64,000 nt of DNA, from positions 1 to 64,000 of the forward strand of contig NZ_LUTP01000005.1 in NCBI RefSeq assembly GCF_002111585.1, in the 5' to 3' direction. The notes beneath the pieces are model-generated. The model did no database searches and had not been told where the DNA came from. It was given only the letters and a program-made list of their open reading frames with translations. Positions 1 through 8,017 of the stretch are shown here, in pieces. The stretch's first letter is position 1. Each line of letters opens with the position of its first letter. The position numbers and the translations under genes were made by a program. This DNA is from Lonsdalea iberica. GTDB lineage: Bacteria > Pseudomonadota > Gammaproteobacteria > Enterobacterales > Enterobacteriaceae.

Positions 1-170
1 GGCGAGGCGCAGGAGACCCTGGGCTGGCGAAGGAGTCCTCGGCCAATGATGGCGGTTCGCTCAGACACTTCTTTGGAGGGGACGAATTGGCCGTCACCGG
101 TAGCCAGTGGCGCGGCGGGCGTCGGCGCCGTGTCTGTCACCTGATAAATCCGCATGGTTGTCTGTGTCAT
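1..170 (-). CDS. Partial CDS of unknown function, coupled to the PabB-GNAT gene
   Basis: Reading leftwards from an ATG at 170, the frame stays open for 56 codons to the window edge, so only the N-terminus is visible. The start overlaps the stop of the preceding gene in an ATGA arrangement, and an AGGAGA ribosome-binding site lies about 9 bases upstream, so this is very probably the third gene of the pabA-pabB operon and translationally coupled to it. The visible part is rich in Thr, Pro and Ala at first (MRIYQVTDTAPTPAAPLATG) and shows no signal peptide or motif that I recognise. Function cannot be assigned; a role with the aminodeoxychorismate product is inference from position only. Confidence 0.6.
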   Translation of the reverse strand, partial: MTQTTMRIYQVTDTAPTPAAPLATGDGQFVPSKEVSERTAIIGRGLLRQPRVSCAS

Positions 171-2167
171 CCCTGGCGTCTCCTGTAGCGTGTCCCGGCG
201 CTGGCGTAGCCGGCGGCCTGATAAAATCGAGTCAGTTTTTCCAGCGCCGGATAGCCGTCCATCGGCAACGTGGCTTCTATCATCGGCCACCCTCGTCGTT
301 GCGCTTCGCGATCCACCGCCGCCAACAACTGTTGCCCCAGACGCGCCGAGCGGTGATCGGGTGCGACCCATAGCTCCTGCAAAATGCCGTATTCGCTGCT
401 GGCGCGCAGCGCGTGCACCCGGGAGACGGTGGCCAACCCGATAATCGCGCGGCTGAAGGGATCTTCGACCAGATAGGCAAAGCCAAAATCCGGGGAGGCG
501 GTGATGCGGAGGGCGGCCCGGCGGGCGCCGTCGTGGGAAAACTGCGGCCCGGGTCCGCCCAGCTCTCGCAGTAGCTGATAGACCGCGTCCGTCATCGCCT
601 GTGCGTCTTCCGGTTTGGCTAAACGCAGCAGCGCCTCAGCGGCAGGTGACTTGGCCGCTTCGCTGAATTCACCTGCAATCGTGAAAGGCGCATCAGCCTG
701 ACCGGTGACAGACTCGGCGATAGCGGCGAGCGGCGCCTGCGCTTTTAACAGGATTTCGTCGAACTCTGCGACAGGGTCGGACAGCGCGACGATAGCGCCT
801 CCGCAGCCGACCGAGACACGGTCCGACGTACAGACGATGGTCCGTATGACAATGTTGAGATCCACGATGCCTGACAGCGACAGGTAGCCGATGGCGCCGG
901 AATAAATGCCACGCGGAGCTTCTTCCATCGCATCGATGATCTCCAGCGTGCGGATCTTCGGCGCGCCGGTCATGGAGCCGCCGGGGAAGCAGGAGGCGAT
1001 ACAACTAAGCGCGGTTTCATTGGCCCCAAGACGGCCTTGAATGACGCTGACTAACTGGTGGACGGTGCGGTAGCTTTCGATATGCATCAGGCTGGGGACG
1101 TTGACGCTGCCGGGCTCGCAAACGCGGCCGAGATCGTTACGCATCAGATCGACAATCATGAGATTTTCGGCCCGGCTCTTCTCGTCCAGACGTAGCGCCT
1201 CGGCAATAGAGGCATCACGAACGGGATCGTCGTCTCGCGGCGAAGTGCCCTTAATCGGTTTGGTCTCTACGATGCGGTCGCGGTCGATGCGCAGAAAACG
1301 CTCGGGAGAGGAGCAGGCCACCGCCAGTTCCCCGAAGCGAAGATACGCGGCGTACGGCGCCGGGTTGCGGCGACGCAGTCGGCGGTACAGATCGAGTGGG
1401 TCAACATGGACCTGGGCGGAAATGTCATTAGTCAGGCAGACTTCATACGTTTCCCCGGCAGTGATTTGGGCCAAACACGCCTCGATGTTGGCCAGATAGG
1501 TCTCTCTACTCTGGCGCAACGCAAAGTTCACTGGAGGAGAAGCGGTGCCTCCCGTAAGGGGAGGGGCAGACGGCAGGTGGCTTAACGTTGCTTTCATCGT
1601 CTCGGCCCAGCCACGCGCCGCGTCCTCCTCCTGAGGGTGATAGAGGGCCACGACATACAGCCGTTTTTCGACGTGATTAAACGCCAAAAAGCGTGAGCAG
1701 AACAGAAATGCGGCGTCCGGATAAGGCGACGGGACCGATGGCACGTTGCAGGTCAGGGTTTTCAATTCATAGCCGAAATAGCCGACGTGGCCGCCGAGAA
1801 AAGGGATGTCGGGCAGCGTTTGCCGCTCGTCCAGAGTGAGCGAGGCTTGGCCCTGTTCCAGATAGTCGAAAATCGACAGCGTCAGCGTCTCCTCGCTGTT
1901 GTCGACGGGCCGAATAACTTGCACGGTCTGCCGTTGGGCATCGTAAAACGTGACGCTGGCATCGTGGCTCGAGGCGTCCCCCATAAAAGACCAGCGCGAA
2001 AGAGGGGGAGCAAGCAGGCTGCTGTCTAGCCAGAACGCGTAGTCGCTGCGGCCGTAAACGTGCACGAAAACGTCTTCGGCGTCGACGGTCAGCGGCAGTG
2101 GCTCGCACAGCAATGCGTAACATTCAGAGGTGGCGGGCGCGGGGGCGCGGTCTTGGTCTTTAAACAT
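167..2167 (-). CDS. Aminodeoxychorismate synthase component I (PabB-like) fused to a GNAT acetyltransferase domain
   Basis: A 666-aa two-domain protein. Residues about 1-490 form a chorismate-binding enzyme of the TrpE/PabB family. The PIKGT motif (Lys306) carries the lysine typical of 4-amino-4-deoxychorismate synthases rather than the PIAGT alanine of anthranilate synthase, and GGSMTGAPK (396-404) is the usual catalytic segment. Residues about 515-666 form a GNAT N-acetyltransferase domain with a recognisable acetyl-CoA loop (ELWVAPDHRSARLGQQLL). The expected reaction is chorismate plus ammonia from the adjacent PabA subunit to aminodeoxychorismate; the acceptor of the acetyl or acyl group is unknown. 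The start overlaps the end of pabA by 8 bases. E. coli PabB has about 453 aa and no such C-terminal domain. Pairing with its own PabA and a downstream coupled gene suggests specialised metabolism rather than folate synthesis; this is inference. Confidence 0.85.
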   Translation of the reverse strand: MFKDQDRAPAPATSECYALLCEPLPLTVDAEDVFVHVYGRSDYAFWLDSSLLAPPLSRWSFMGDASSHDASVTFYDAQRQTVQVIRPVDNSEETLTLSIFDYLEQGQASLTLDERQTLPDIPFLGGHVGYFGYELKTLTCNVPSVPSPYPDAAFLFCSRFLAFNHVEKRLYVVALYHPQEEDAARGWAETMKATLSHLPSAPPLTGGTASPPVNFALRQSRETYLANIEACLAQITAGETYEVCLTNDISAQVHVDPLDLYRRLRRRNPAPYAAYLRFGELAVACSSPERFLRIDRDRIVETKPIKGTSPRDDDPVRDASIAEALRLDEKSRAENLMIVDLMRNDLGRVCEPGSVNVPSLMHIESYRTVHQLVSVIQGRLGANETALSCIASCFPGGSMTGAPKIRTLEIIDAMEEAPRGIYSGAIGYLSLSGIVDLNIVIRTIVCTSDRVSVGCGGAIVALSDPVAEFDEILLKAQAPLAAIAESVTGQADAPFTIAGEFSEAAKSPAAEALLRLAKPEDAQAMTDAVYQLLRELGGPGPQFSHDGARRAALRITASPDFGFAYLVEDPFSRAIIGLATVSRVHALRASSEYGILQELWVAPDHRSARLGQQLLAAVDREAQRRGWPMIEATLPMDGYPALEKLTRFYQAAGYASAGTRYRRRQG

Positions 2168-2792
2168 GTAAACCGTCCTTGTGTTGTGCAGTTTTTATCT
2201 GAAACGGGGTGATGTCGTCGGAGAGAAAGTTGTTGAAGAGTTCTCGGCCATACTCTGAGCAGATTGACTCTGGGTGAAATTGGACGCCCCAATGCGGCTG
2301 AGTACGGTGCCGCAGCGCCATGACGATGCCGTCCTCCGTCTCTGCGATCAGTTCCAGCTCATCGGGTAAGACGCTGTCGGCCACCAGAGAGTGGTATCGC
2401 GTGACTTCGAAGGTGTCGGGTATCCCGCTGAACAAGGGGGTGCCGTAATGTCGGATGCGCCGGAGGCGACCATGCATCGGTTCTGGGGCTGTAATGACGC
2501 GACCGCCGTGATGCAACGCCAGACATTGGTGGCCAAGACAGACGCCCAGCACCGGTACATCGGCATACGCCAAAATGTCCATTGAGCTGCCGACGTCTCG
2601 TCGCTGGTACGGCGTGCCGGGGCCGGGGGAAAGGATGATACGGTCATGGGGAATTTTATGAATTTCGCGCCAGGAGAGCGTATTCGGTAATACGAGAGCC
2701 TCCCGGCCATTCACCTCACCGACCATTTGCGCAATATTGAATGTAAAACTATCGAAATTATCGATGATAATAACACTTTTTTGATGACGCAT
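2160..2792 (-). CDS. pabA: Glutamine amidotransferase subunit of aminodeoxychorismate synthase (PabA-like)
   Basis: A class I glutamine amidotransferase of 210 aa that should release ammonia from glutamine for the neighbouring PabB-like subunit. The nucleophile Cys sits in GVCLGHQ and the His/Glu pair in the HPES motif; the oxyanion loop SPGPGTP is also present. Two ATGs lie in frame at 2807 and 2792. I choose 2792 because the GGAGGA ribosome-binding site overlaps the first ATG and is correctly spaced for the second. It is the first gene of the minus-strand operon and overlaps the pabB start by 8 bases. Sequence alone does not separate PabA from TrpG; the partner's lysine motif favours PabA. 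It may be a dedicated paralogue rather than the folate gene, since adjacency of pabA and pabB is not the E. coli arrangement. Confidence 0.85.
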   Translation of the reverse strand: MRHQKSVIIIDNFDSFTFNIAQMVGEVNGREALVLPNTLSWREIHKIPHDRIILSPGPGTPYQRRDVGSSMDILAYADVPVLGVCLGHQCLALHHGGRVITAPEPMHGRLRRIRHYGTPLFSGIPDTFEVTRYHSLVADSVLPDELELIAETEDGIVMALRHRTQPHWGVQFHPESICSEYGRELFNNFLSDDITPFQIKTAQHKDGLHV

Positions 2793-3972
2793 CGTATATT
2801 CCTCCATGAAATAGAGAGCGGCTCAATATCAGCATATAAAAGGTTTTATCAATCTGGTTTGGGAACATGTAGTGTCAATCTTCAATAATGAGTCTTTATC
2901 ACGACCAGACTATTTAATGCAAGATTTTCCTGGTGTGTTATTGATGTGTTCATCATTCGTTGTCTCAGTAGTGACAATATTCTCGCGATATTGGTTCGGG
3001 GTTAACGATGATATTTATTTCTAATTATTATGAGATATCGTGCATAATATGCGCGTTCGCGACCCAATAAGGAACGGTCTCGCTATTTATATTTTCCTGT
3101 TGATTTATAGTGTTTTTTTTATCGAAGCTAGGTGTAAGTAAAGATCACGTTTTAATGTATCAGTTGTGGGCGGTAAGAATGGATAGGCTATTGGGATTTC
3201 GGTATTCAAAGTCATCGCCCGTAAAATTCATAATGAGAATGACTTAGGGTAATCATGAATTAATTTTTAGGTAAAACTAAGGGTTATTTTTAGTCAGAAA
3301 AAGGTGCGTGATAATCACAAATTCATTTTCTGAGGAGGTGTCTGTTCTTGAATGGTTTTTTCGTTTTTTACAAAAAATGGCCATCGCGCTTTATTTGTTG
3401 GTTCAAGTTTTATCTAAAAGAGAGGCTTCATGTTTTACGTCACCGGTTCAATGGCTTTATTCGTACGTCACAATGAATAACGTAATTTCACTCATTGTAT
3501 TGCCGCGCGTCTCTCCGTTACTCGAATGATGTGGAGTCTCGATTCCGTTTTCCTGACGTAGAATGTTGAGTCTTTTTCGATACTCAACAACGGCCTGGCT
3601 ACATTTCTCTGTCTTATGAGGATGTCTATCAAATGACCGGGTTGTCCCTGAACGTGGGCTTCATCGGCGTGGTTGGCGCTCAGGTCGCATGTGAAGGCTC
3701 GCGACAACCCGGCAGGGGACGCTTTCGCTTAAGGCTTGGTCAAAAACGCTACTAGCTGAAAAGATGTTGAATGCAGGTTGTCGAGAGCACCTGCTGGCTG
3801 GTGGGTGGGTGGGGAATTCAGAGGGAGCGTCAGGTAAGAAAACGACGTTGACTCATGGGCGGCTTCGCCGACCTTGTCCTGCATCTTGGGTCCGCAGCTC
3901 TAGAGAGCGGTTCGTCAGATAACGCCCGATGGGGCTTGGGCGTGGTGTCATTAGCAACGTCTTGCTGTGCCG
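2793..3972. other. AT-rich intergenic region upstream of the pab operon
   Basis: About 1.2 kb without a convincing gene. The first 300 bases hold the presumed minus-strand promoter of pabA. Further on there are only short frames without good ribosome-binding sites, one Fur-box-like site, a small hairpin near 3564-3587 (GTTGAGT/ACTCAAC arms) and an inverted repeat CCGGGTTGT/ACAACCCGG around 3637-3712. Composition is clearly more AT-rich than the flanking genes up to about 3500. Nothing further can be named. Confidence 0.5.
3229..3247. promoter_or_regulatory. Putative Fur box
   Basis: The 19-base segment beginning CATAATGAGAATGACT resembles the Fur consensus GATAATGATAATCATTATC, with the core ATAATGA and AAT elements retained. 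No clear gene starts immediately downstream on either strand, so its target is unknown and it may be a chance match. Confidence 0.2.
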
Positions 3973-4509
3973 TTAGCGATTTTCCAGCCCGGCTTCTTGG
4001 CGTTTGGCGCGAATTTCGGCTTCGTTATCGCGTATATACTCACCCAGTTGCTCCAGCCCTGAGCGTACCTTCTGCCACTCGGCGGCATGCTGGGCTTTCG
4101 GCGTCACGGGGTTGGGGTGGGCGGCATCCCATGCCAGTGCTTGCTGGATTGAAGCAGACCAATTTTTGGGCGAACCGCCAGCCCATTCGTTGATGGTCTG
4201 TCCGAGCGTGGCGTTCAGAGAGGCCATCAGCGCGGGCTCGCCATCCGGCGGAAGATTGGGGTTAGCCAGCAGATAATAGCGAAAGCGCAGTTGGCCGATG
4301 TAAAACCAGGTGACGGCTTTATCACGTTCGCCAGCCTCATATAGCCGCTGGGCATACTGATAAAGTTCGCTGGGATGCGCCTGTGCGAGCTGTGCGTCGG
4401 TTTCCGATTGAACGGCAACGAGGACGGGGTTGATCTCAGCCGCGAAGGCGAGGGGGCAGACATTGGCGGATAGCGCCGTCAAAAACAGTAGGGTGCAACT
4501 CCGATTCAT
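3973..4509 (-). CDS. Exported protein of unknown function
   Basis: A 178-aa protein starting at the ATG at 4509, preceded by AGGAG with 7-base spacing. An in-frame upstream extension to 4680 exists, but it lacks a ribosome-binding site and places residues before an obvious signal peptide. The signal peptide covers about residues 1-24 (hydrophobic core LLFLTALSA, cleavage after AFA); there is no lipobox. The mature part is mostly helical, with a repeat-like segment around YQYAQRLYEAGERDKAVTWFY reminiscent of a TPR/Sel1 helix pair, and is rich in Trp, Ala and Glu. Predicted location is the periplasm. I do not recognise a named family. Neighbours give little help: a LysR gene lies upstream on the same strand, 363 bases away. 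Confidence 0.65.
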   Translation of the reverse strand: MNRSCTLLFLTALSANVCPLAFAAEINPVLVAVQSETDAQLAQAHPSELYQYAQRLYEAGERDKAVTWFYIGQLRFRYYLLANPNLPPDGEPALMASLNATLGQTINEWAGGSPKNWSASIQQALAWDAAHPNPVTPKAQHAAEWQKVRSGLEQLGEYIRDNEAEIRAKRQEAGLENR

Positions 4510-4871
4510 GGAAACTCCTGTCAGCGCCGAATCGGCGGGGTGGTCACGATGTGTGCGCGTCGAAACCTGGTGAGGTAGACATGCGATAAAACAGTAGCAG
4601 GATTTGTTATACGTCACACGAGCGCGTTTCAATGATGTTAACGTCGAATACCCTGTCAATGCTGTTGGGCTATGGTACAACGCGGCGTCCCGGTAAGCGT
4701 CCTATCGCGTTATTTGCCACGTCCGCGATGTCACTTTCCGCGGCCGTGAATCGCGGCATGAACGTTTACACCTATGCCTGCCGAATTAGGCCGCCGGCGG
4801 CCTATTTTATCTTTCCGTGCCTGCCTGGCAGGCGGAAGGCGCGACCGGCGGTACTGAGAAGTGCTGAAACC
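4510..4871. other. Intergenic region with an orphan plus-strand terminator
   Basis: About 360 bases between the LysR stop and the exported-protein start, both on the minus strand. It should carry the promoter of the exported protein. It also contains a GC-rich perfect palindrome followed on the plus strand by a T-rich tract, although no plus-strand gene precedes it. No protein gene is credible here. Confidence 0.45.
4787..4814 (+). terminator. Rho-independent-terminator-like hairpin without a cognate gene
   Basis: TAGGCCGCC directly followed by GGCGGCCTA (4787-4804) and then TTTTATCTTT. The T-tract lies on the plus-strand side only; on the minus strand the stem is not followed by T residues, so it does not look like the LysR terminator. 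It could end a short untranslated plus-strand transcript starting between about 4620 and 4740. Confidence 0.4.
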
Positions 4872-5756
4872 TCAGGGGACGTTATGGCACTCTTTGATCA
4901 GTTGAATGAAATGGCGCAGCTCATCCTCCTTTCGCTTGAGATAATAAATATACGACACCTCGGCGGGCTGATTGAGAAAGAGGGGACGAGTGGCCAAAGG
5001 AATATGACGGGATATTTCGAAGTTCATAAAAGAAGAGCAGGAGAATGAATAACCTTTACCCGCAGCGAGATATTCGATGACGTGCGAAAAGTCCGGGAAA
5101 ATGTGCACTCTGGCGCGAGTATTCGCCATTCGACGGTGCTGGATAGTTTTTTCCAGAATGGGATGAGACAGCATCGATGAGTGAGCGACTAAATCCTCCT
5201 CGACGATCAGCTCCATAATATCCTCATATTTATCATTCACATTATGCGCACTGATAAGCATGCAACTGTCATTCATGAGAGCGAAGCAGGCAATACGCTC
5301 GAAGCTATCGACATACTTAGGACAGGAGGAGATGAAGAAGTCGAGCTCTTCCGATAACAGCTTATTTTTGAACTCGGTGTAGGAGTGCTGCATGCACAAC
5401 AGGTTAATCCCTTTTTTTATCGAGTTCGAAAAGATGATTTTATAGAAACTGTCGTTGTAGGCGTCCGTCCCTATTTTCAGCTCACGAAAAAACTTTGTGT
5501 TTTTGGTGACCAGCTTGGTGATATTTTCCAAGCGCTCCCTGACGGGCAACAGCTGTCGATAAAATAAATCACCTTCTTTCGTCAGATTGATGCCTGAATT
5601 TGAACGATTAAACAGCCGATATCCGAGAGAGTCTTCGAGATCGCTAATACTTTTGCTCAGTGCAGGAGGGGTCACATGGATGCGTTCTGCGGCGGCTTTG
5701 AATGAGCCTAATTCCGATATCACGATAAAATGCTCAACTTTTTTTGAAAATATCAT
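4872..5756 (-). CDS. LysR-family transcriptional regulator
   Basis: A 294-aa LysR-type regulator. The N-terminal winged helix-turn-helix is clear (residues about 5-64; FKAAAERIHVTPPALSKSIS then LEDSLGYRLFNRS), followed by the linker helix and a substrate-binding-like effector domain. The ATG at 5756 has a GGTGG ribosome-binding site. It sits between the pab operon region and, divergently and about 1.5 kb away, an SDR dehydrogenase at 7250, so either could be a target. The AT-rich codon use and several Lys/Asn-rich stretches differ from the neighbouring core genes, consistent with horizontal acquisition. No close subfamily (CysB, OxyR, MetR) is recognisable; the effector is unknown. Confidence 0.85.
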   Translation of the reverse strand: MIFSKKVEHFIVISELGSFKAAAERIHVTPPALSKSISDLEDSLGYRLFNRSNSGINLTKEGDLFYRQLLPVRERLENITKLVTKNTKFFRELKIGTDAYNDSFYKIIFSNSIKKGINLLCMQHSYTEFKNKLLSEELDFFISSCPKYVDSFERIACFALMNDSCMLISAHNVNDKYEDIMELIVEEDLVAHSSMLSHPILEKTIQHRRMANTRARVHIFPDFSHVIEYLAAGKGYSFSCSSFMNFEISRHIPLATRPLFLNQPAEVSYIYYLKRKEDELRHFIQLIKECHNVP

Positions 5757-7249
5757 ATACCACCTCTATGGGTTCCATAAAATACAACTCATCTTCCTAA
5801 TTGATAAATGAAAAGTCTGTGGGTCTTATCAGACCAGGACCTCTCAGCGCCCAGAGCAAAAGAAATAGAAATACTGCGTCTTGGGGACGAATTTTTTAGT
5901 ATTCGTGTTTTTTATTTCAATAGATTATGTGCTTTTGAAGGGTTTTATGATCATGATAATAATGAGAACAATATTCGATTTTTTTGGGCTTCATAACAGC
6001 GAATAAGAAAATATGTGTCTTTTTATTTCGTAATTCTTCTCGGTGGGTGTATCTCGCAGCGGCATTGGGAAATATCCTGATGTTCTATTTTGGTTAAAAA
6101 TAAGTGAGCTTTATATTCTATACACTACTCTGAATCGATGGGCAAGCACTGTGCCGGATCAGAAATGGATGGCTTCCATGCTCAATATGTTAACCGGTAT
6201 TTGGACCTGTGGAGAAGGGGATAAGACCGGTTCGCGGCGGCGCTATCGCCTGCCCCATCAGAAAATATGAGCATTGCGGCTCCCCGTCAGCGAACTGTTG
6301 TTCCCTATTTGGAAATGACTAAACGCAAGCGCGCTGGGGACGCGCTCGCGCATTGCAGCCCATTGCATGATGTCTGCTCTCTGTCGTGAATTTTGCGCCA
6401 TCGCAATTTAATCCTGAACTTTTTTTCTTCATTTTGTGACGTGGCCCGGTGTTTGCTTATTTTTTAGAAAATCCAGTTCAATATCCAGGCTATTCGCCAT
6501 CATGTCTTTTCTGTGTTTATCCGTTAATTTCGATAATGTCAAAAGAATAGAGGTGATTACGTCTGGTTTTATTAATAAAGATGGATTTGCTAACAAAGTC
6601 CGGGTGCAGTGGCTGTCATTATAAGTATGAATGGATTCAAGGCCAGACGTTTATTTGAGCCGCGTTGAAACTTTTATTTTTTAGAAACTGATGTGAGTTA
6701 TTTTGTAATTAATGAAAAATAGCACATGCCCAATATAGACAAAGGGCAGATATCGAAATAGCCCGGGCCATAATGGGTTATCGATTGTTGGGGTTTGGAT
6801 ATTGCCAGCGTTTATTTTCGGTGAGACGGTGGTCCGAGGGGCGCTTCATTTAATCATCAAGGGGGCGATATTGAAAACGTCATAGTGTCGTCTTGATTTT
6901 TTCTCAGACAGAACAGGCGAATGGGCCGATGTCTACCGGCAGCCTCACGCTTCGCGGCCTCAGGATAGGCGGCGTTTGATGCGGTGCACGATCGCGATCC
7001 GCTACCTAGACTGTAATAAGAACGGAACGCATTACTGCCGTGAGCCACGCTGCCGAAGGGGCTTTCCGCATGCGAGGGCTTGCTGCCCATGGGGCTTCAA
7101 CGTCCCTTATCCGTTGCGGGCACGGCCTCGCCGTCGACCTGTCATGAACATTCACCGTCTCACATGGACGGCGTCAATACGGTTGATGGCGAAGGGCCGG
7201 CAGAATGCATTCATTATGTGACTCAAACACGCAAATTACAGGAGATATC
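5757..7249. other. Long AT-rich intergenic region between LysR and SDR genes
   Basis: Nearly 1.5 kb with no frame that combines a credible start, ribosome-binding site and protein-like sequence. It is AT-rich up to about 6800 and then becomes GC-rich until the SDR gene. It should include the divergent promoters of the LysR gene and the SDR gene. Candidate frames at 5808, 6043, 6436 and 6976 on the plus strand and at 7090 on the minus strand were inspected and not accepted. It may hold decayed genes. Confidence 0.45.
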
Positions 7250-8017
7250 ATGAGCGTAAATACTCACCACGATCGGCGTCTGGCAGGCAAAGTCGCCATC
7301 ATTACGGGTGCGGCGAAAGGTATCGGACGCGCGACGGCGGAACTCTTTGCCGCACAGGGCGCTCAGCTAATGCTCGCCGACGTAGATGCTGCTGGGGTCA
7401 AGGACCTGGCCGCCCGCCTGAGCGAGAGCGGCAATAAAGTCACCGCCCAGGCCTGTGATGTCCGGCATGAAGATGATATTCGCCGCACGATCGATGCCAC
7501 TCTCGCTGAGTTCGGGCATATAGATATTCTGGTGGCCAATGCCGGTATTATCCCGGAAGCCACGCTGGAAGAGGCGACCGCGGAACTGTGGGACGAGACG
7601 TTTGCCGTTGATGCGCGCGGCATGTTCCTTTCGGCAAAATACGCCGCCAGCGAGATGGTGAAGGCGGGCAAGGGCGCCATCGTCTTCCTCTCGTCTATTT
7701 CCGCCGCCGGGGGGCAGCCGGGGCAGGCCGTCTATGGCCCCGCGAAATTTGTGGCGTCGGGCTTGACCAAACATCTGGCGATTGAACTGGCGGGGAAAGG
7801 GGTTCGCGTTAACGCCGTGGCGCCGGGGACAATTGATACCCCGGCCGTGGCCGGTCTGACCAAGGAGGGTATTGAAAAAGTGGTGGCGATGCATCCGCTG
7901 GGACGCATGGGAAAACCTGAAGAGATCGCCTGGGGGATTTTATTTTTGGCGTCCGATGAGGCATCGTTCATCACCGGTGCCGTGCTGCCGATAGACGGCG
8001 GGTTCCTCGCGCAGTAG
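7250..8017 (+). CDS. SDR-family NAD(P)-dependent oxidoreductase
   Basis: A 255-aa classical short-chain dehydrogenase/reductase. The cofactor loop TGAAKGIG is at residues 19-26, NAG at 97-99, the catalytic Ser at 149 and the YGPAK motif gives Tyr162 and Lys166. The C-terminal DGGF motif is also typical. Asp39/Asp43-type acidic residues after the second beta strand (MLADVDAAG) favour NAD over NADP. The start at 7250 has AGGAG six bases upstream; the earlier in-frame start at 7205 has none. The substrate cannot be told from the sequence; relatives act on sugars, alcohols or 3-oxoacyl groups. It stands alone on the plus strand, followed by its own terminator, and may be controlled by the divergent LysR gene. 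Confidence 0.85.
   Translation: MSVNTHHDRRLAGKVAIITGAAKGIGRATAELFAAQGAQLMLADVDAAGVKDLAARLSESGNKVTAQACDVRHEDDIRRTIDATLAEFGHIDILVANAGIIPEATLEEATAELWDETFAVDARGMFLSAKYAASEMVKAGKGAIVFLSSISAAGGQPGQAVYGPAKFVASGLTKHLAIELAGKGVRVNAVAPGTIDTPAVAGLTKEGIEKVVAMHPLGRMGKPEEIAWGILFLASDEASFITGAVLPIDGGFLAQ

What the first reader, a model, noticed from the sequence alone, without database searches (positions are those of the whole stretch)
167..2792. PabA-like/PabB-like pair with the PabB subunit fused to a GNAT acetyltransferase
The sequence shows a complete PabB-type domain (Lys in PIKGT, so aminodeoxychorismate rather than anthranilate chemistry) followed in the same frame by a GNAT domain of about 150 residues. 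Housekeeping PabB lacks this. Dedicated pabAB pairs are established entry points to specialised metabolites such as p-aminophenylalanine-derived antibiotics; the fused acetyltransferase could modify the product or an amine intermediate. The role is inference.
Basis: partly seen in the sequence, partly recalled or inferred. Interest (0 to 1): 0.75.

Follow-up and report, generated by a model that had tools for sequence, protein, structure and literature searches.

The report
Aminochorismate operon with acetylation and deacetylation domains
A tree-pathogen bacterium carries a small, dedicated gene set that appears to make an unusual amino compound from the aromatic-amino-acid pathway, with one domain that probably adds an acetyl group and another that probably removes it, hinting at protecting-group chemistry not found described in the papers searched.

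Summary
Confirmed: window 167-2167 (-) encodes one 666-aa protein, an aminodeoxychorismate (ADC) synthase subunit (PIKGT lysine; passes TIGR00553) with a C-terminal GNAT acetyltransferase domain; pabA (2160-2792/2807) precedes it. The fusion recurs in other Lonsdalea and in Bradyrhizobium sp. 187 (55% identity), so it is not an assembly error. The genome (Lonsdalea) has separate housekeeping pabA and pabB, so this pair is dedicated. The window edge is a contig edge inside an operon that continues: histone-deacetylase/acetylpolyamine-amidohydrolase-like domain fused to a PapB-like chorismate-mutase domain; a 196-aa protein without Pfam or NCBIfam family, distantly like the prephenate decarboxylase BacA; an MFS exporter. 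Bradyrhizobium has the same order on a nif-bearing plasmid. No prephenate dehydrogenase (PapC) is in the operon, so ordinary p-aminophenylalanine is less likely. Best reading: chorismate to ADC, N-acetylation, mutase step, non-aromatising decarboxylation, deacetylation, export: an amiclenomycin-like amino-cyclohexadiene or relative. The gene set and its selection are shown; the chemistry is inferred. In 3 of 5 Lonsdalea assemblies one operon gene has a changed reading frame. New variant of a known kind.

The parts
2160..2807 (-). pabA-like glutamine amidotransferase subunit; likely start at 2792 (GGAGG upstream)
   Evidence: GATase 166 bits; TIGR00566 160.7 over 121
167..2167 (-). pabB-GNAT fusion, 666 aa
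743..1507 (-). chorismate-binding (ADC synthase) catalytic domain of the fusion, PIKGT lysine
   Evidence: PF00425; motif
170..667 (-). C-terminal GNAT acetyltransferase domain of the fusion
   Evidence: PF00583/PF13508; profile match to 2r1i E 9.6e-8; purifying selection
3..170 (-). first 56 codons of the HDAC-like/chorismate-mutase gene, cut by the contig end; the rest is on contig C9 (L058:13267-14421), followed by the BacA-like gene (L058:12660-13247) and the MFS gene (L058:11483-12667)
   Evidence: the two contig ends abut without a gap when compared with L007
4872..5756 (-). LysR-type regulator, possible regulator of the operon; kept next to it in 5 of 5 Lonsdalea genomes
   Evidence: PF00126; tblastn

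Best explanation
The pair is the head of a dedicated operon pabA / pabB-GNAT / HDAC-CM / BacA-like / MFS that makes and exports a small aminated chorismate-derived metabolite. PabA and the PabB part turn chorismate into 4-amino-4-deoxychorismate (ADC). The fused GNAT acetylates the 4-amino group; the PapB-like mutase domain rearranges the compound to (acetamido/amino)-deoxyprephenate; the BacA-like protein decarboxylates it without aromatisation, which leaves a cyclohexadiene; the HDAC-like amidohydrolase removes the acetyl group; the MFS protein exports the product. The acetyl group would act as a temporary protecting group that stops loss of ammonia, keeps ADC out of folate synthesis, or keeps a PLP-reactive amino-cyclohexadiene harmless inside the cell. 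Shown by sequence: gene set, fusions, conservation, selection. Inferred: every substrate and the order of the acetylation and deacetylation steps.
For: Same gene order in Lonsdalea and Bradyrhizobium sp. 187 at 44-66% identity per part. Housekeeping pabA/pabB elsewhere. PIKGT lysine. The L. quercina CM domain passes TIGR01803 (83.6 over 73.35) and, like the Bradyrhizobium one, shares MQPxR[VI] and II[DG]E[AT]C..E with the CM domain of a PapC-PapB-like protein (L055) and with a CM beside pabAB (L010), not with the CM of the genome's own PheA. The HDAC domain keeps PPGHHAG, DxH and GFD in both lineages; its best PDB match is an acetylpolyamine amidohydrolase for L. quercina (E 1.9e-38). For the GNAT model 10 of the 15 PDB matches at E up to 0.001 are aminoglycoside, tabtoxin-resistance, spermidine or amino-acid-type acetyltransferases (low-confidence model). 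BacA-like: hhalign score 35.1 over 161 columns, against at most 17.9 for 36 control frames and 17.8 for 40 shuffles; own PheA 30.8 over 52 columns; both the family and BacA lack the TRF of PheA. Purifying selection in the six parts measured.
Against: No chemistry tested. The BacA link rests on a shallow profile and a BacA sequence recalled from memory; hhalign probability is only 59%, and there is no Pfam or NCBIfam family and no convincing PDB match. Several 29-38% relatives lie beside amino-acid ABC or TRAP transporter genes, which suggests another substrate there. No aminotransferase is in the operon. The Bradyrhizobium CM scores 64.7, under the TIGR01803 cut-off, and the Bradyrhizobium HDAC protein matches HDAC6 better than the polyamine enzymes. 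All NCBIfam matches of the GNAT part are far below cut-off, and for Bradyrhizobium the best is a RiPP acetyltransferase. The GNAT's R-x-x-G-x-G motif (recalled) is kept in L. quercina (RAAGLG) but reads RSARLG here and RSAQNG in Bradyrhizobium. One operon gene has a changed reading frame in 3 of 5 Lonsdalea assemblies, this one included, so the path may be decaying or the drafts faulty.
Confidence: 0.45

Rival explanations
1. A p-aminophenylalanine (PAPA) route: ADC synthase plus mutase lead to 4-aminophenylpyruvate and an aromatic product, with the last step done by the BacA-like protein or by an enzyme elsewhere; GNAT and HDAC decorate the product.
For: ADC synthase plus PapB-like mutase is the known PAPA entry (PMC4863162, passages). 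The MFS protein's best NCBIfam model is a chloramphenicol-efflux family, 158 bits against a cut-off of 400.
Against: No prephenate-dehydrogenase gene in either lineage's operon, whereas a PAPA-type control locus, L055, has a dehydrogenase part fused to its mutase. The 196-aa protein matches no dehydrogenase family.
Confidence: 0.2
2. Self-protection: the GNAT inactivates the finished toxic amine as resistance acetyltransferases do, and the HDAC-like domain reactivates it before or during export; neither is a biosynthetic step.
For: The GNAT's fold neighbours include aminoglycoside acetyltransferases and the tabtoxin resistance protein (low-confidence model). An exporter is in the operon.
Against: The GNAT is fused to the first committed enzyme and, in Lonsdalea, the deacetylase-like domain to the second, which fits early intermediates better than the finished product.
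Confidence: 0.2
3. Dedicated operon, but GNAT and HDAC-like domains act on other groups (for example on an alpha-amino group or a carrier), and the 196-aa protein is not a decarboxylase.
For: GNAT substrate cannot be read from sequence; its NCBIfam matches, all far below cut-off, include peptide and ribosomal-protein acetyltransferases. The 196-aa family has no described member in the libraries searched.
Against: Most of the nearest structures of the GNAT model, and the L. quercina HDAC domain's best match, are enzymes of free small amines.
Confidence: 0.12
4. An ordinary folate pabAB pair with an accidental fusion.
For: NCBIfam would name it pabB.
Against: Separate housekeeping pabA and pabB; fusion shared with Bradyrhizobium and under selection; separate clade.
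Confidence: 0.03

Closest known systems
PAPA pathway (PapA/PapB/PapC; chloramphenicol, pristinamycin, Pseudomonas papABC)
   Same: Dedicated ADC synthase plus PapB-like mutase in one locus
   Different: No PapC-type dehydrogenase; a GNAT fused to ADC synthase, an HDAC-like domain fused to the mutase, a BacA-like protein
Stravidin/amiclenomycin clusters (Streptomyces)
   Same: Proposed amino-cyclohexadiene from chorismate; an N-acetyl-amiclenomycin residue occurs in a stravidin (PMC13336041, passages)
   Different: The stravidin gene list could not be compared: the primary paper is not held and no cluster was reached. The sta cluster is said to include branched-chain-type enzymes; none is in this operon
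Bacilysin BacA (prephenate decarboxylase)
   Same: About 200 aa, TLGPxGT start, no TRF motif, profile similarity over 161 columns
   Different: 19% identity; expected substrate carries an amino or acetamido group instead of hydroxyl
Acetylpolyamine amidohydrolases (HDAC family)
   Same: Zinc-hydrolase motifs; best PDB match of the L. quercina domain
   Different: First 110 residues or so not matched in the best alignments; in Lonsdalea fused to a chorismate-mutase domain; the Bradyrhizobium protein matches HDAC6 best

Membership tests
ADC synthase component I (PabB) | Model score over curated cut-off; lysine in PIKGT | tested here: met
   TIGR00553 359.6 over 328.4; TKPIKGT
Folate housekeeping PabAB | Only pabA/pabB of the genome | tested here: not met
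   Others at C21 and C11
GNAT acetyltransferase | Pfam cut-off and sequence match to a solved GNAT | tested here: met
   PF00583 24.9 over 20.7, PF13508 26.6 just under 27; 2r1i E 9.6e-8; activity not tested
PAPA (papABC) cluster | PapC-type prephenate dehydrogenase | tested here: not met
   None among the operon proteins
PAPA (papABC) cluster | PapB-like mutase | tested here: met
   TIGR01803 83.6 over 73.35 for the L. quercina domain; the Bradyrhizobium one scores 64.7, under it
Prephenate decarboxylase (BacA) family | Recognisable homology to BacA | tested here: inconclusive
   hhalign 35.1, probability 59%, controls at most 17.9; BacA sequence recalled
Prephenate decarboxylase (BacA) family | Non-aromatising decarboxylation | not testable with these tools
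   Needs an assay
Stravidin/amiclenomycin cluster | Gene set of the published cluster | not tested
   Reference cluster not available
HDAC/acetylpolyamine amidohydrolase | PF00850 and zinc-site motifs | tested here: met
   158 bits over 27.9; motifs (their roles recalled)

The most novel reading that the evidence does not exclude
A protecting-group pathway built into two fusion enzymes: ADC synthase hands its amine to its own acetyltransferase, the mutase carries its own deacetylase, and an undescribed BacA-like family keeps the ring non-aromatic, yielding a short-chain amiclenomycin-type suicide inhibitor of PLP enzymes in tree pathogens and a nodule bacterium.
Probability: 0.3. Interest if true: 0.8.

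Novelty: new variant of a known kind. Interest (0 to 1): 0.6.

Why it matters
If true, it links chorismate metabolism, reversible N-acetylation and non-aromatising decarboxylation in one compact five-gene operon, suggests a function for a protein family without Pfam or NCBIfam model, and points to a likely antimetabolite shared by a tree pathogen and a nodule bacterium. The PabB-GNAT/HDAC-CM architecture is also a precise handle for genome mining.

Tried and rejected
Rejected: artefactual fusion (same fusion in independent assemblies); folate role. The structure model of the BacA-like protein was useless (mean pLDDT 38) and was not searched; the GNAT model is mediocre (59.6), so its fold matches are weak support. 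The stravidin comparison failed: the paper is not held, streptavidin as a marker found two plasmid hits at 44%, and the avidin family rang in 0 of 246 actinobacterial genomes and in no control genome, which the tool says does not show absence. The NRPS near the operon (L058:1618-5484) was considered as a partner and left open; genes that look like cytochrome oxidase by eye lie between. The epimerase, cupin and SDR genes downstream were dropped from the operon because they are not found in the held stretches of 2 of 5 Lonsdalea genomes (L008, L063). Broken pabB/pabA pieces at L006:22599-24730 belong to another gene pair (44-50% identity in PabB, pabB before pabA). No Rfam family in window 1-8000. 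Promoter-like sites are near chance (7 found, 4.6 expected). G394, G523, G457 and G429 loci with 44-51% PabB show no GNAT, HDAC or 196-aa relative nearby.
Full report
What is there. The window is the left end of contig C5 of a 3.78-Mb genome. On the minus strand, pabA (2160-2807; start probably 2792) overlaps pabB-GNAT (167-2167) by 8 bases, and that gene overlaps the next by 4. The 666-aa protein has the Anth_synt_I_N, Chorismate_bind and GNAT domains in one open frame; it passes the pabB model, and no trpE model in the 25 of 27 rows shown reaches its cut-off. Its motif is PIKGT, against PIAGT in the genome's TrpE-like protein.

Is it a dedicated set? Yes. Five Chorismate_bind genes lie in the genome. 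The one on C11 is a housekeeping PabB (741 bits over a cut-off of 622). Three TrpG/PabA proteins pass their cut-off: one on C21 flanked by genes that I recognise by eye as ppiA and argD, one beside the TrpE-like gene, and this one. In a tree of 26 PabB/TrpE rows the 4 fused PabBs form one clade (99/98), and housekeeping PabB falls outside the 20-row group that holds them (100/99).

The operon goes on beyond the window. In L. quercina (L007) the next genes are a 442-aa protein with a histone-deacetylase domain and a chorismate-mutase domain, a 196-aa protein, and an MFS protein. In the window's own genome these are at the end of contig C9; the ends of C9 and C5 abut base to base when compared with L007. 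The same genes are found in L008, L009 and the G002 stretch. Bradyrhizobium sp. 187 carries pabA, pabB-GNAT, HDAC, CM (separate here), the 196-aa relative and MFS in the same order on plasmid p187_1, about 55 kb from nif genes. Identities to L. quercina are 66% (PabA), 61% (PabB), 50% (GNAT), 45% (HDAC), 49% (CM), 60% (196-aa), 49% (MFS). The LysR gene is present in 5 of 5 Lonsdalea genomes.

How rare is it? The 196-aa protein is in 5 of 5 Lonsdalea genomes, 2 of 149 family genomes, both Lonsdalea, and 3 of 398 of the phylum sample: this genome and two at 33% and 29%. In one further order (centre G523, same phylum but not same class, so by inference Alphaproteobacteria) it is in 3 of 219, at 34-35%. 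PabB-GNAT over at least 80% of its length: 1 of 619 matching plasmid records. Over its full length: this genome only of 398 (four others matched at E 1e-90 but ended at residue 495 or before); none of 346 actinobacterial genomes (9 matched at 1e-100, ending at residue 512 or before). In some searches at most three candidates a genome were scored, so a weaker fusion could have been missed. The GNAT part alone matched 2 plasmid records: Bradyrhizobium sp. 187 and a stand-alone GNAT at 29% in Mesorhizobium. A pattern scan of genome contigs, which finds close relatives only, gave 4 loci: 3 Lonsdalea fusions and one Solirubrobacterales pabAB without GNAT. Seven other Bradyrhizobium plasmids hold partial 196-aa matches (40% of the query); in the one I examined of the seven (L015) it is a broken gene beside an MFS relative.

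What the parts suggest. The L. quercina CM domain matches the CM-like subfamily model (83.6 over 73.35; the Bradyrhizobium copy scores 64.7). Both share MQPxR[VI] and a Glu in the last helix with the CM domain of a PapC-PapB-like protein (L055) and with a CM beside pabAB (L010), where the genome's PheA has RDKERE and Gln. From recall, PheA residues at these places contact the 4-hydroxyl of chorismate, so their change fits a 4-amino substrate. The HDAC domain keeps the zinc and catalytic motifs (motif roles recalled); the L. quercina domain matches an acetylpolyamine amidohydrolase best, the Bradyrhizobium protein HDAC6 first and the polyamine enzymes next. The GNAT part's NCBIfam matches are all far below cut-off: an aminoalkylphosphonate acetyltransferase first for the window, a RiPP acetyltransferase first for Bradyrhizobium. 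Its best PDB profile match, 2r1i, is uncharacterised; of the 15 Foldseek matches at E up to 0.001, 10 are acetyltransferases of small amines, with a caveat for the mediocre model. The 196-aa protein has no Pfam or NCBIfam family (in one search one of 8 members touches PDT at E 0.22 and three touch PRTase-CE at best 0.046). It has no PDB match at E 0.1, and its profile found only two unrelated chains at E 0.25 and 0.72. Its profile aligns with BacA over 161 columns at score 35.1; the 36 control frames that gave a result reached 17.9, 40 shuffles 17.8, PotF 15.0, LysR 15.3; the genome's own PheA gave 30.8 over 52 columns. BacA decarboxylates prephenate without aromatisation (PMC9147277, passages). 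Relatives at 29-38% lie beside an amino-acid ABC transporter in Variovorax (L013, annotation) and TRAP transporter genes in L056 (Pfam); by eye the same holds for L069 and L057. In L068 no transporter was seen, and L012 and L067 were not resolved.

Inference. ADC synthase plus a PapB-like mutase is the known entry to p-aminophenylalanine (PMC4863162, passages), but PapC is missing and a BacA-like protein stands in its place. An acetyltransferase fused to the first enzyme and a deacetylase-like domain fused to the second suggest acetylation and deacetylation of pathway intermediates. An amino-cyclohexadiene is a plausible product class: stravidins contain amiclenomycin, one isolated stravidin has an N-acetyl-amiclenomycin residue, and they inhibit BioA through its PLP cofactor (PMC13336041, passages and two sections; PMC13111796, passages). 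That the acetyl group protects is my proposal and is untested.

Condition of the genes. dN/dS among G000, G003 and G004 is 0.08-0.12 (pabA), 0.15-0.17 (pabB), 0.13-0.30 (GNAT), 0.13-0.14 (HDAC, without its first 57 codons), 0.04-0.10 (196-aa), 0.25-0.33 (MFS). G001 and G002 were left out because their pabB frames change, and the CM domain because its tail changes frame in G000. So 3 of 5 assemblies show one affected operon gene each; these may be draft errors or early decay.

In print. In the held library, searches for ADC synthase + GNAT + fusion + biosynthetic gene cluster and chorismate mutase + histone deacetylase-like + biosynthetic gene cluster returned 0 papers. 4-amino-4-deoxychorismate + acetyltransferase + deacetylase and 4-amino-4-deoxychorismate + N-acetyl + cyclohexadien returned 3 and 2, unrelated by their listings; 4-amino-4-deoxyprephenate + decarboxyl returned 5, on PAPA by their listings. 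Lonsdalea + biosynthetic gene cluster gave 10 and Lonsdalea + secondary metabolite + genome 29, of which 12 were listed; of these I read passages of one only. It is an antiSMASH survey of L. populi and relatives (PMC7914447), which names NRPS, siderophore, aryl polyene and PKS clusters and does not contain the word chorismate. Most subscription papers are not held, so this is not proof of novelty.

Noticed in passing
L058:1618-5484 (G000 contig C9): Single-module NRPS (C-A-T-TE, 1288 aa) about 6 kb beyond the operon's MFS gene, with genes that look like cytochrome oxidase between; substrate not determined.
   Followed up: partly
L017 (G000 contig C9), chorismate-mutase tail: In this genome the last part of the mutase domain reads in another frame than in L007/L008/L009 and runs on into the 196-aa gene (587-aa open frame).
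   Followed up: partly
L013, L069 and L056/L057: Relatives (29-38%) of the 196-aa protein lie beside amino-acid ABC or TRAP transporter genes (L069 and L057 judged by eye) in other Pseudomonadota, so the undescribed family is wider than this operon.
   Followed up: partly
L006:22599-24730 and NZ_CP064694.1:199671-200075: Broken pabB/pabA pieces with an annotated IS5 transposase gene between two pabB pieces, and a broken GNAT remnant of the fused kind (44%), on the Bradyrhizobium plasmid.
   Followed up: partly
window 3973-4680 (-): Protein of about 235 aa (TTG start) between the LysR gene and pabA with no Pfam or NCBIfam match; found in L007, L008, L009, not in the G002 stretch at E 1e-10.
   Followed up: no
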